DNA of 64,000 nt from NCBI GenBank assembly GCA_037200985.1, contig JBBCGJ010000001.1, positions 3,386,756 to 3,450,755 on the forward strand, in the 5' to 3' direction. Both the position numbers and the translations under genes were made by a program. The notes beneath the pieces are model-generated. The model did no database searches, was not told the DNA's origin, and saw only the letters and a list, made by a program, of their open reading frames with translations. Every line of letters begins with the position of its first letter. Positions within the stretch are counted from its first letter, which is position 1. The stretch comes from Rhizomicrobium sp. (GTDB taxonomy: Bacteria; Pseudomonadota; Alphaproteobacteria; Micropepsales; Micropepsaceae). Below, one piece after another: positions 23,329 to 33,861 of this stretch.

Positions 23329-23503
23329 TCACGCGGAGACGCAGAGAACGCGGAGTTCTTTAGCGGTCGGCACGGATTGATCGTCATTGTCATTCCCGCG
23401 CAAGCGGGAATCCAGGGCCATCCCAAAGACTGGATGCCCGCCTTCGCGGGCATGACAATGTTAGAGGAAGCTGCAACTCCGAGTTCTCCGCGGCTCCGCG
23501 TGA
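23329..23503. repeat. Nested inverted-repeat element (MITE/REP-like)
   Basis: Two layers of inverted repeats share one centre. Outer arms are 23329-23357 and 23475-23503 (29 bases each, 26 matching). Inner arms are 23385-23415 and 23430-23460 (31 bases each) and contain the common TGTCATTCCCGCG-type palindrome found dispersed in many proteobacterial genomes. No coding sequence is inside. It follows priA directly and could form a long hairpin in RNA or be a non-autonomous mobile element. Confidence 0.7.
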
Positions 23504-23512
23504 ATCAAAAAC

Positions 23513-23598
23513 TGGCGGAGGGTGAAGGAGTCGAACCCTTAGCGTTGCCGCTACCCCGGTGTTCGGAACCGGTTGCCGGCCATTCGGCGGCACCCTCC
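23513..23598 (-). tRNA. Serine-type tRNA-like gene, anticodon CGA, possible 8/4 fold
   Basis: 86 bases with encoded CCA and G73. The acceptor can pair over 8 bases (GGAGGGTG/CACCCTCC). The T-stem then has 4 pairs (AGGG/CCTT, one G-T) around TTCGACT. The long variable arm is perfect (TAGCG-GCAA-CGCTA), as in class II tRNAs. The anticodon stem CCGGT/ACCGG closes the loop TCCGAAC, giving anticodon CGA but with C at position 33 where nearly all tRNAs have U. The D-arm is weak (GCC/GGC). This is either an allo-tRNA-like gene with a 12-pair acceptor branch or a drifting tRNA-Ser(CGA). Confidence 0.7.
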
Positions 23599-23601
23599 GT
23601 T

Positions 23602-23692
23602 TGGCGGAAGGGGTTGGGATCGAACCAACGCGGGATAACGAACCCCGGCTACGGCTTTCAAAGCCGACACATTGCCTCTCTGTCACCCTTCC
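23602..23692 (-). tRNA. tRNA-Ser(TGA)
   Basis: 91 bases with encoded CCA and G73. Acceptor GGAAGGG/CCCTTCC (7 pairs), D-stem ACA/TGT, anticodon loop TTTGAAA (anticodon TGA, normal U33), long variable arm with CGGG/CCCG, T-arm GTTGG-TTCGATC-CCAAC (5 pairs). This is a standard class II layout. It lies three bases upstream of the unusual CGA gene, so the two are probably one transcript. Confidence 0.88.
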
Positions 23693-23833: not shown

Positions 23834-24319
23834 CTATACATCGTGAAAATTCAGGTATGGCGCGATGGCTTCCTTGAGCCGTAGAAGCCCATTCTCAAAG
23901 TCGTTGAGTTGGATGTCCTGAATTTCTTCAAACTTCTTGTGATAAAAAGCGGGATCAGCCACATACAGCTCCGGATTCTCCTTGAAATATATTACTCGTC
24001 CACCTTTCTCGTTTAAGCCTTTGAGAAGAGACTCGATTTCAGATTTGTTGCTGAACAAAAATTTTGACTCTTGGTATGCGTGAAAAAATCGCCTTTTAGC
24101 GGCTTCTTGTTCTGGCGTTCCCTTCCACGAGACCATCGCATCCCAGTAGTCAAAGATACTATCAAAGATCGCGAGCCGCCTGCCGAAGAGGTCAAAGCGA
24201 AGCTTTTGTTCGGCAATTGTCTTTTGATGCCACGCGAAGTACGCGGTTACTGATAAGGCAGACAGCGCTGCAATAACTGTAGCTACAGGTCCTGCGAAAT
24301 CTTTCAGCACTTGGTACAT
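23834..24319 (-). CDS. Hypothetical membrane-anchored protein
   Basis: 161 residues. One N-terminal transmembrane segment (about 12-30, ATVIAALSALSVTAYFAW) is followed by a charged, mostly helical cytosolic part (RFDLFGRRLAIFDSIFDYWD). I recognise no domain. GC is clearly lower than in neighbouring genes, and it sits beside the two tRNA genes, which suggests acquisition by transfer. A promoter for it is not obvious. Confidence 0.65.
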   Translation of the reverse strand: MYQVLKDFAGPVATVIAALSALSVTAYFAWHQKTIAEQKLRFDLFGRRLAIFDSIFDYWDAMVSWKGTPEQEAAKRRFFHAYQESKFLFSNKSEIESLLKGLNEKGGRVIYFKENPELYVADPAFYHKKFEEIQDIQLNDFENGLLRLKEAIAPYLNFHDV

Positions 24320-31213: not shown

Positions 31214-33466
31214 ATGTCCAACATCAAGAAGCCCTCTTTCACCAGGGACGAAGCCCTCGCCTTTCACGCCCAGGGAAAGCCCGGAAAGCTCGAGATCACG
31301 CCGACCAAGCCGATGGCGACGCAGCGCGACCTGTCGCTCGCCTATTCGCCCGGCGTGGCGGTGCCCGTGCTGGCGATCGCGGAGAATCCCGATCTCGCCT
31401 ATGACTATACGTCGAAAGGCAACATGGTGGCCGTGATCTCCAACGGCACGGCGATCCTGGGGCTGGGCGATCTGGGCGCGCTGGCGTCCAAGCCGGTGAT
31501 GGAGGGCAAGGCGGTGCTGTTCAAGCGCTTCGCCGACGTCGATTCCATCGACCTGGAGGTCGACACCTCCGACGTCGAGCAATTCATCGGCGCGGTGCGC
31601 TATCTCGGCCCCTCCTTCGGCGGCATCAACCTGGAGGACATCAAGGCACCGGACTGCTTCGTCATCGAGGAACGGCTGCGCGAGATGATGGACATTCCCG
31701 TCTTCCACGACGACCAGCACGGCACCGCGATCATCTCCACCGCCGGCATCATCAATGCGATGCACCTGACGGGGCGCAAATTCGAGGACCTCAAGGTCGT
31801 GGTGAACGGCGCGGGCGCGGCGGGTATCGCCTGCCTCGAACTGCTCAAATCCATGGGCCTGCCGAGCGCCAATGCGATCCTGTGCGATTCCAAGGGCGTG
31901 GTCTATCGCGGCCGCACCGAGGGCATGAACCAGTGGAAGTCGGCGCATGCGGTGGAGACCAAGGCGCGGACGCTGGAAGACGCGGTCAAGGGCTCGGACG
32001 TGTTCCTCGGCCTGTCGGTCAAGGGCGCGATGACCCAGGAGATGGTGATGTCGATGCGCAAGGCGCCGATCATCTTCGCCATGGCCAATCCCGATCCGGA
32101 GATCACGCCGGAGGAGGTGAAGGCGGTGCGCTCCGACGCCATCGTCGCCACCGGACGCAGCGACTATCCCAACCAGGTGAACAACGTGTTGGGCTTTCCC
32201 TACATATTTCGCGGAGCACTCGACGTGCGGGCGCGGACCATCAACGAGGCGATGAAGATCGCCGCCGCCGAGGCGCTGGCGGAGCTGGCGCGCGAGGACG
32301 TGCCGGACGAGGTCGCCGCCGCCTATCGCGGCGCGCGCCCGGAATACGGGCCGGACTACATCATCCCGGTGCCGTTCGATCCGCGCCTGATCAGCCGCGT
32401 GTCGCGCGCGGTGGCGGAAGCGGCGATCAGGACCGGCGTGGCGCGGCGCGAGATCAAGGACCTCGACGCCTATTCCTTCCAGCTTTCGGCGCGGCTCGAT
32501 CCCTCCGCCGCGCTGTTCCAGCGCATCACAGCCAGCGTGCGGGCCAATCCCAAGCGCGTCGTGTTCGCGGAGGGCGAGGAGGAATCGGTGATCCGCGCCG
32601 CCGCCGCGTTCCAGAACTCCGGCCTCGGCAAGGCGATCCTGGTGGGGCGCGAGGAGATCATCAAGAACGGCATCCGCCGCGCCGGCCTCGACGAGCACGG
32701 GCTGGAGATCCGCGTGCCGCATTCGGCGCAGGACGCCCAACCCTATATCGAATTCCTCTTCAAGCGGCTGCAGCGGCGCGGCGTGCTCTATCGCGACGCG
32801 GTGCGCATGGTGACCAACGACCGCAACGTCTATGCGAGCGCGATGCTGGCGCAGGGCGATGCCGACGCGATGGTGACGGGCGTGACGCGGAACTATGCCG
32901 CGGCGCTGACCGATGTGCGCCTGGTGCTCGATCCGCCCAAGGGCGAGCGGCCGATCGGCGTGATGCTGATCTTCGCGCGCGGCAGGCTGGTGTTCGTCGC
33001 CGATACCTCGGTGCACGAGATGCCGACGAGCGAGGAGCTGGCCGACATCGCGGTGCAGGCGGCCGGCGTGGCGCGGCGCTTCGGCTTCACGCCGCGCGTG
33101 GCGCTGCTCGCGTCCTCGACCTTCGGCTTTCCGCGCAGCGAGCGCTCGGAGCGCATCGTCGAGGCGGTGCACATCCTGGACGAGCGCCATGTCGATTTCG
33201 AATATGACGGCGAGATCGCGGTGGACGTGGCGCTCGACCGCGAGAAGATGCTGCTCTATCCGTTCTGCCGGCTGACCGACACGGCGAACGTCCTGATCAT
33301 GCCGGCGATCCATTCGGCGGCGATCTCGACCCGGCTCCTGTCGCAGCTCGGCGGCGTGACGATGATGGGGCCGCTTCTGATCGGGCTGGAGAAATCGGTG
33401 CAGATCGCCCCGCTCGGCGCCAAGATGAGCGAGATCTACAACGCGGCGGTGATCGCGGCGCTTTAG
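31214..33466 (+). CDS. maeB: NADP-dependent malic enzyme with phosphotransacetylase-like domain
   Basis: 750 residues, the size of the MaeB hybrid. The malic-enzyme domain (about 1-420) shows SLAYSPGVAVPV, FHDDQHGTAIISTAG and VVNGAGAAGIACLELL for NAD(P). From about residue 430 a phosphate-acetyltransferase-like domain (RVVFAEGEEESVIRAA, TGVTRNYAAAL) is regulatory in known MaeB proteins, sensing acetyl-CoA. It converts malate to pyruvate and CO2 with NADPH formation. The NADP preference is assigned from the family. Confidence 0.94.
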   Translation: MSNIKKPSFTRDEALAFHAQGKPGKLEITPTKPMATQRDLSLAYSPGVAVPVLAIAENPDLAYDYTSKGNMVAVISNGTAILGLGDLGALASKPVMEGKAVLFKRFADVDSIDLEVDTSDVEQFIGAVRYLGPSFGGINLEDIKAPDCFVIEERLREMMDIPVFHDDQHGTAIISTAGIINAMHLTGRKFEDLKVVVNGAGAAGIACLELLKSMGLPSANAILCDSKGVVYRGRTEGMNQWKSAHAVETKARTLEDAVKGSDVFLGLSVKGAMTQEMVMSMRKAPIIFAMANPDPEITPEEVKAVRSDAIVATGRSDYPNQVNNVLGFPYIFRGALDVRARTINEAMKIAAAEALAELAREDVPDEVAAAYRGARPEYGPDYIIPVPFDPRLISRVSRAVAEAAIRTGVARREIKDLDAYSFQLSARLDPSAALFQRITASVRANPKRVVFAEGEEESVIRAAAAFQNSGLGKAILVGREEIIKNGIRRAGLDEHGLEIRVPHSAQDAQPYIEFLFKRLQRRGVLYRDAVRMVTNDRNVYASAMLAQGDADAMVTGVTRNYAAALTDVRLVLDPPKGERPIGVMLIFARGRLVFVADTSVHEMPTSEELADIAVQAAGVARRFGFTPRVALLASSTFGFPRSERSERIVEAVHILDERHVDFEYDGEIAVDVALDREKMLLYPFCRLTDTANVLIMPAIHSAAISTRLLSQLGGVTMMGPLLIGLEKSVQIAPLGAKMSEIYNAAVIAAL

Positions 33467-33861
33467 GGCGCAATGAGCGGCACGGACGGAAAATAGGTTC
33501 GATAGCGGCTAGGATCACGCGTCAGGAGCCGATAGCCGCCGACCGCCGCATGCGCTCCGATGAAGAAATCCGGCAGCGGCGAGCGACGGACGCCGCCGCG
33601 TCTGCGATATCGCGCGAAGGCCTTGCCGGCGAGGAATGCCGCCTCGTACGGAACGATCTCACGCTCGATGGCGGATGGTATCGCGTCGTCGGCCAGCTCC
33701 GGACTGTCATAGCCGACCGACATTTCGGCGTAGATCACCAGATTGATGACCACGCGTCCGCGATCGAGCGCATCCAGCAGTGCGGCAGATGAAACCGCCG
33801 ACCAAACAGGATCCGGAACCAGAATGTCGAGAAGGACATTGCTGTCGACAAGAACCGCCAC
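33463..33861 (-). CDS. vapC: PIN-domain toxin VapC
   Basis: 132 residues from a GTG at 33861, which follows the antitoxin TGA directly. The PIN-domain acidic residues are at VDSNVLLDIL, YAEMSVGYD and SPLPDFFIGAHA. VapC toxins cleave tRNA or rRNA when the antitoxin is lost. The 3' end overlaps maeB by four bases on the other strand. Confidence 0.92.
   Translation of the reverse strand: MAVLVDSNVLLDILVPDPVWSAVSSAALLDALDRGRVVINLVIYAEMSVGYDSPELADDAIPSAIEREIVPYEAAFLAGKAFARYRRRGGVRRSPLPDFFIGAHAAVGGYRLLTRDPSRYRTYFPSVPLIAP

What the first reader, a model, noticed from the sequence alone, without database searches (positions are those of the whole stretch)
23513..23598. Serine-type tRNA gene with an 8/4 acceptor branch and C33
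The gene can pair 8 acceptor bases and only 4 T-stem bases, has a perfect variable arm and encoded CCA, but a cytosine replaces the nearly universal U33 before anticodon CGA. Allo-tRNAs with 8/4 or 9/3 folds and serine identity have been described in bacteria (Mukai, Soll and co-workers). Next to it is a normal 7/5 tRNA-Ser(TGA), which makes the contrast clear.
Basis: partly seen in the sequence, partly recalled or inferred. Interest (0 to 1): 0.72.

Follow-up and report, generated by a model that had tools for sequence, protein, structure and literature searches.

The report
Phage-derived 8/4 serine tRNA with C33
This is a spare serine tRNA gene of an unusual shape (8-pair acceptor stem, 4-pair T stem) that an alphaproteobacterium shares with temperate phages and has kept structurally intact; it belongs to a family common in phage and plasmid tRNA clusters that standard tRNA finders often miss.

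Summary
The gene at 23513-23598 (minus strand) is real. It can only fold as 8/4 (position 49 cannot pair with 65), and it has a perfect variable arm, G73, encoded CCA, anticodon CGA and C33. ARAGORN and Rfam's tRNA model both miss it. It is not a solitary oddity. A covariance model built here finds 140 distinct 8/4 tRNA-Ser(NGA) genes, mainly in phages and cyanobacterial tRNA arrays. In them position 8 pairs with 65 in 137/140, and a Watson-Crick pair 9:45 covaries (CG 82, GC 49). Only the window genome and its closest sampled relative (2 of 69 in the genus) have it, at one leuC-priA site. The relative's copy is 82/86 identical to one in an alphaproteobacterial temperate phage, so acquisition from a phage is likely. 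All changes since then keep the fold, including compensatory pairs, which argues against a pseudogene. C33 predates the split of the two genomes and recurs in 23/140 members. The genome also has a normal tRNA-Ser(CGA), so the gene is a spare. Its upstream partner carries GCT, not TGA, in the relative. The kind (8/4 tRNA-Ser, Mukai et al. 2017) is known. Charging, decoding and any nuclease-evasion role remain inferred.

The parts
23513..23598 (-). 8/4 tRNA-Ser(CGA) gene with encoded CCA
   Evidence: sequence; model R1 102.2 bits, E 1.9e-25, against at most 49.5 bits for canonical tRNA-Ser in the genus
23591..23598 (-). 5' half of the 8-bp acceptor stem (positions 1-8)
   Evidence: pairs with 23517-23524; 8:65 pairs in 137/140 distinct relatives
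23517..23524 (-). 3' half of the 8-bp acceptor stem
   Evidence: as above; G73 at 23516, CCA at 23515-23513
23575..23588 (-). D arm: 4-bp stem (GCCG/CGGC) with 6-nt loop AATGGC
   Evidence: D stem covaries in all four pairs across 48 sequences
23556..23572 (-). anticodon arm: 5-bp stem, loop TCCGAAC, anticodon CGA at 23565-23563, C33 at 23566, C38 at 23561
   Evidence: sequence; C33 and C38 shared with relative G072 (loop CCCGAAC)
23540..23553 (-). variable arm TAGCG-GCAA-CGCTA
   Evidence: two compensatory double changes against G072 (TAACC-GCAA-GGTTA)
23525..23539 (-). 4-bp T stem with 7-nt loop TTCGACT
   Evidence: sequence; 4 T-stem pairs form in 100% of the 48 sequences
23602..23692 (-). 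partner tRNA-Ser, 7/5, anticodon TGA (23660-23658), 3 nt upstream of the 8/4 gene; ortholog in G072 has GCT
23599..23601 (-). 3-nt spacer (AAC) between the two tRNAs
   Evidence: sequence

Best explanation
The gene is an intact, spare serine tRNA of the 8/4 type, acquired from a temperate phage in the ancestor of this species and its closest sampled relative, as part of a two-gene cassette [tRNA-Ser(GCT)-type]-[8/4 tRNA-Ser(NGA)]. Shown by sequence: 8/4 fold, family membership, near-identity to a phage copy, one shared insertion site in two genomes, maintenance of every base pair since, and presence of a normal tRNA-Ser(CGA) elsewhere. Inferred: it is co-transcribed with its partner, charged by the host SerRS (which reads G73, acceptor and variable arm, not the anticodon), reads UCG with lower efficiency because of C33, and acts as a reserve serine tRNA when the host tRNA-Ser pool is limiting or destroyed, for example by anticodon nucleases.
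For: Fold: 26/26 pairs, at most 20/26 in shuffles. Family: 48-sequence alignment with 96.2% of cells paired and 19 of 27 pairs with changes on both sides; 137/140 distinct members pair 8:65 while only 36/140 could pair 49:65; U8-A65 (C1 mycobacteriophages, Shigella phage B2) and C8-G65 (L131) are compensatory variants of the 8th pair. Origin: G072 copy and prophage copy L130/L301 differ at 4 of 86 positions; L130 also carries terminase, portal and capsid genes (my reading of the ORFs). Distribution: 2 of 69 genus genomes, 102-103 bits against 49.5 for the next match. Ten relatives have leuC, none with a tRNA nearby. Constraint: 6 differences from G072 = two compensated pairs plus two unpaired bases, while flanking spacer aligns poorly. 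Redundancy: housekeeping Ser CGA, TGA, GGA, GCT all present.
Against: No expression, charging or decoding data. No sigma-70-like promoter was found upstream, though that scan does not cover alphaproteobacterial promoters well. C33 normally weakens an elongator tRNA (established knowledge, from memory). The nuclease-evasion role is only an analogy.
Confidence: 0.75

Rival explanations
1. Anti-defence tRNA: the cassette is kept because its odd fold and loop (C33, C38) make it insensitive to tRNA-cutting toxins or defence nucleases (VapC, PrrC-like, others) that destroy the host tRNA-Ser.
For: Homologues sit in phage tRNA clusters and plasmid arrays. C33 arose repeatedly (at least 16 changes on the tree). 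Phage tRNAs with anticodon-loop changes are proposed to evade anticodon nucleases (PMC10264068). A PIN-domain protein lies 10 kb away in the window.
Against: C33 is in only 23/140 members. Compared with other tRNAs found by the same program the excess is not significant (8/95 against 44/961, p 0.13). PIN proteins are common. No nuclease of this host with this target is known.
Confidence: 0.3
2. Decaying pseudogene: C33 and C38 are the first steps of loss, made possible by the normal tRNA-Ser(CGA).
For: Redundant with L038; C33 is unusual, 45 of 45 other tRNAs of this genome have U33.
Against: C33 and C38 are older than the split from G072, C33 is already in the phage copy, and all later changes preserve pairing, with two compensatory pairs.
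Confidence: 0.12
3. Suppressor, missense or regulatory allo-tRNA in the sense of Mukai et al.
For: Same 8/4 branch and serine-type features; reported allo-tRNAs can be charged with serine in E. coli (review PMC7609411).
Against: The anticodon CGA is a cognate serine anticodon, so no miscoding is expected if serylated; all but a handful of the relatives carry NGA.
Confidence: 0.06
4. A selC-like selenocysteine tRNA.
For: Best Rfam match is tRNA-Sec (29.2 bits).
Against: Below the cut-off of 47; 12-bp not 13-bp branch; anticodon CGA; no tRNA-Sec above cut-off in the genome, and housekeeping Ser and Leu tRNAs score higher on that model.
Confidence: 0.01

Closest known systems
8/4 tRNA-Ser of bacteria and phages (Mukai et al. 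2017, Nucleic Acids Res 45:2776; abstract recalled from memory, paper not held)
   Same: 8-bp acceptor and 4-bp T stem, long variable arm, serine anticodon, phage and bacterial occurrence
   Different: Here on a chromosome without phage genes, in a tight two-gene pair, with C33 and C38. I could not check whether C33 or the 9:45 pair were noted there.
allo-tRNAs (8/4 and 9/3) of Clostridia, Proteobacteria, Acidobacteria (review PMC7609411)
   Same: 12-bp 8/4 branch, serine-type identity features
   Different: Most allo-tRNAs have non-serine anticodons; this one has CGA and its family NGA.
Phage and plasmid tRNA arrays, incl. Anabaena trn operon on plasmid delta, silent until translational stress (PMC10272220) and mycobacterial tRNA array units (PMC5966550, abstract)
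   Same: Homologues of this gene lie inside such arrays (Nostoc pNOS7524.01, Kovacikia pA, Sphingobium phage Lacusarx)
   Different: Only two tRNAs here, no array and no mobile genes beside them.
Anticodon-loop-altered phage tRNAs of C1 mycobacteriophages (van den Berg et al. 2023, PMC10264068)
   Same: Spare tRNAs with loop changes next to the anticodon
   Different: That study holds that C1 phages avoid Ser(NGA). Searches show an 8/4 Ser(CGA), often unannotated, in many of these phages.

Membership tests
8/4 tRNA-Ser | 8-bp acceptor stem and 4-bp T stem, not 7/5 | tested here: met
   own fold; 8:65 pairs in 137/140, 49:65 possible in 36/140; the base before the 4-bp T stem pairs inside the variable arm
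8/4 tRNA-Ser | long variable arm, G73, serine anticodon | tested here: met
   sequence; variable-arm covariation
8/4 tRNA-Ser | charged with serine by SerRS | not testable with these tools
   needs aminoacylation assay
8/4 tRNA-Ser | homology to phage-borne copies | tested here: met
   4 of 86 differences between G072 ortholog and prophage L130; BLAST
allo-tRNA (narrow sense, suppressor/missense) | non-serine or stop anticodon | tested here: not met
   anticodon CGA reads UCG
tRNA-Sec (selC) | score above Rfam cut-off, UCA anticodon, 13-bp branch | tested here: not met
   29.2 against 47 bits; CGA; 12 bp
canonical tRNA-Ser (7/5, U33) | 7/5 branch, U8, U33 | tested here: not met
   A49.C65, G8, C33
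tRNA pseudogene | relaxed constraint, broken pairs | tested here: not met
   no broken pair; 2 compensatory double changes against G072
anti-defence phage tRNA | resistance to a tRNA nuclease | not testable with these tools
   needs cleavage or infection assay

The most novel reading that the evidence does not exclude
8/4 tRNA-Ser(NGA) genes are a widespread, under-annotated class of mobile serine tRNA whose different core (8/4 branch, 9:45 pair) and recurrent loop changes (C33, or G32/U38 in C1 mycobacteriophages) let them escape the nucleases that cut host tRNA-Ser in its anticodon loop. The bacterium of this window has domesticated such a pair as an immunity or anti-toxin reserve.
Probability: 0.2. 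Interest if true: 0.75.

Novelty: new variant of a known kind. Interest (0 to 1): 0.5.

Why it matters
It shows an 8/4 serine tRNA passing from a phage to a chromosome and staying under structural selection beside a full housekeeping set. It gives a testable model for tolerance of C33, at a position nearly always U. It also exposes a blind spot: ARAGORN misses 30/117 U33 and 13/21 C33 members of the family. Because of that blind spot, the published statement that C1 mycobacteriophages avoid Ser(NGA) tRNAs needs re-examination: of 57 such 151-158 kb records listed, 34 have no annotation over the gene, 3 call it tRNA-Leu, 1 'OTHER' and 19 tRNA-Ser.

Tried and rejected
Exact search for the anticodon arm in viral contigs gave two chance matches in other sequence (L060, L061). 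A first 5' pattern was off by one and found nothing, repaired. The key 2017 paper is not held. Attempts to score a 7/5 structure with the pair counter failed on string balance; the same test was done by counting 49:65 pairs. RNA folding alone prefers a different D arm (z -2.0), so the 8/4 cloverleaf rests on covariation, not on minimum energy. Considered and rejected: sequencing error for C33 (shared with G072); tRNA-Sec. C33 'enrichment' was tested and is not secure: 23/140 against 44/961 gives p 2e-6, but with equal detection (ARAGORN only) 8/95 against 44/961 gives p 0.13.

Full report
1. Observation. The minus strand of 23513-23598 reads GGAGGGTG-CC-GCCG-AATGGC-CGGC-AA-CCGGT-TCCGAAC-ACCGG-GG-TAGCG-GCAA-CGCTA-AGGG-TTCGACT-CCTT-CACCCTCC-G-CCA. 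Every one of the 26 cloverleaf pairs is standard; 200,000 shuffles never exceeded 20. With 7/5 pairing position 49 (A) faces 65 (C), whereas G8 pairs with C65, so 8/4 is the complete fold. C33 (23566) precedes CGA. ARAGORN misses it, the Rfam tRNA model does not reach its cut-off, and tRNA-Sec scores 29.2 against a cut-off of 47.

2. Genome context. The window lies in G000 (4.64 Mb, one contig). Judging by gene order and relatives this is an alphaproteobacterium (inference). The genome has 46 Rfam tRNAs including normal Ser CGA, TGA, GGA and GCT. All 45 distinct tRNAs read at the other loci have U33. The gene sits between leuC and priA (names by my reading of the ORFs), 3 nt downstream of a second Ser gene.

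3. Relatives. BLAST with both tRNAs found mainly the 8/4 gene, not its partner, at 73-80% identity in phage tRNA clusters (Salmonella Arash, Mycobacterium Sparky, Sphingobium Lacusarx, Shigella B2, Erythrobacter XM05) and in cyanobacterial plasmids. In Sparky, Arash and pNOS7524.01 it is unannotated, fitting the gap beside annotated or predicted tRNAs. Pattern scans of viral and genome contigs brought many more, among them Xanthobacteraceae MAGs L148 and L149 and Pseudaminobacter soli L160 with the same two-gene order, tRNA-Ser(GCT) followed within 2-9 nt by an 8/4 tRNA-Ser, and C33.

4. Structure. On 48 sequences (A4) the 8/4 structure has 96.2% of cells paired, covariation score 0.516 against 0.164 in shuffles and at most 0.134 when slid. 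Position 9 pairs with the second base after the anticodon stem (45) in all 48 (CG 32, GC 16), and in the enlarged set CG 82, GC 49, 9 others (two of those nine are T.G wobble). I take this as a tertiary Watson-Crick pair specific to this family; the housekeeping Ser(TGA) of this genome has G at both places (sequence). Model R1 gave 140 distinct NGA members over two searches: 8:65 pairs in 137, 49:65 could pair in 36. Some search patterns fixed G8 or C65, but not both at once except in sequences found twice, and the BLAST-found members with U8-A65 are free of that bias.

5. Evolution here. R1 finds the gene in G000 (102.2 bits) and its closest sampled relative G072 (103.1 bits), 2 of 69 in the genus and 2 of 96 in the order, 1 of 385 in the class sample, 3 of 398 in the phylum sample. 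Only a few top candidates per genome were scored in the larger searches, so rarity there is approximate. Both copies lie at one leuC-priA site; ten other relatives have leuC (priA seen within reach in six) and no tRNA there; G073 shows a 290-nt spacer without it. The G072 8/4 gene differs at 4 of 86 positions from one in a prophage (L130, same DNA as L301 of G551), which carries terminase, portal and capsid genes by my reading. Between G072 and the window there are 6 differences: A-U to G-C, C-G to G-C, and two loop bases. Nothing breaks. This is the main argument for a constrained RNA.

6. The partner. In G072 it reads GCT (loop TTGCTAA), in the window TGA (loop TTTGAAA), with the rest of the gene nearly unchanged. 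All three anticodon bases changed and serine identity would be kept, since SerRS ignores the anticodon (established knowledge). I read it as an anticodon switch between the AGY and UCN boxes. The mechanism is unknown; the anticodon lies in a DNA hairpin with a three-base loop, where such block changes may be easier (speculation).

7. C33. 23 of 140 distinct members have C33, the rest U33, with at least 16 changes on a weakly resolved tree. On the same loci other tRNAs show C33 in 44/961 and the other Ser tRNAs in 1/74. ARAGORN finds 8/21 C33 members but 87/117 U33 members, and with ARAGORN-only counts the excess is not significant (8/95 against 44/961, p 0.13). So C33 is recurrent and old here, but a specific enrichment is not proven.

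8. Function. Best reading: a spare, phage-derived, serylated UCG reader held as a reserve. Shown: fold, kinship, acquisition, constraint. Inferred: transcription, charging, decoding, benefit. The cyanobacterial arrays that carry a homologue resemble the operon that is silent until translational stress in Anabaena (PMC10272220), which suits a reserve role.

9. Wider point. C1 mycobacteriophages (Bixzunavirus) carry an 8/4 tRNA-Ser(CGA), loop GTCGAAT, acceptor U8-A65, between Ser(GCT) and Leu(CAG). A 2023 study concluded that these phages rarely encode Ser(NGA) tRNAs and avoid them because of anticodon nucleases (PMC10264068). In 57 listed records 34 have no annotation there, and in Sebata the gene is called tRNA-Leu. 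Its supplementary tables could not be read here, so I say only that the claim should be re-examined.

10. Placement. The kind, 8/4 tRNA-Ser in bacteria and phages, is known (Mukai et al. 2017, from memory; review PMC7609411). New here are the chromosomal two-gene cassette kept in two species, the old and recurrent C33, the 9:45 covariation (not checked against that paper), the partner's anticodon switch, and the annotation blind spot.

Noticed in passing
23602-23692 (minus), anticodon 23660-23658: Partner tRNA-Ser has anticodon TGA where its ortholog in G072 and its phage-type relatives have GCT: a three-base anticodon switch in an otherwise near-identical gene.
   Followed up: partly
L286, L287, L288 (Mycobacterium phages Alice, Nappy, Sebata) and rows: 8/4 tRNA-Ser(CGA) is present in over 100 mycobacteriophage records, mostly unannotated or misnamed, against a published claim that C1 phages avoid Ser(NGA).
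   Followed up: partly
23834-24319 (minus): 161-aa ORF in a low-GC stretch (40-52% against about 69%) between leuC and the tRNA pair; absent from all 68 other genus genomes searched, including G072; one plasmid relative at 29%; no Pfam match.
   Followed up: partly
33463-33861 (minus): PIN-domain protein (Pfam PF01850), possibly a VapC-type toxin; no antitoxin looked for.
   Followed up: no
23391-23415 and nearby: Repeat-like inverted element CATTCCCGCGCAAGCGGGAATCCAG just beyond the tRNA pair; only one copy in the window.
   Followed up: no
L073 3442-3529, L074 12147-12233, L085 3973-4058 and others: Some phage tRNA-Ser(GCT) also appear to fold 8/4, so the odd branch is not confined to NGA anticodons.
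   Followed up: no
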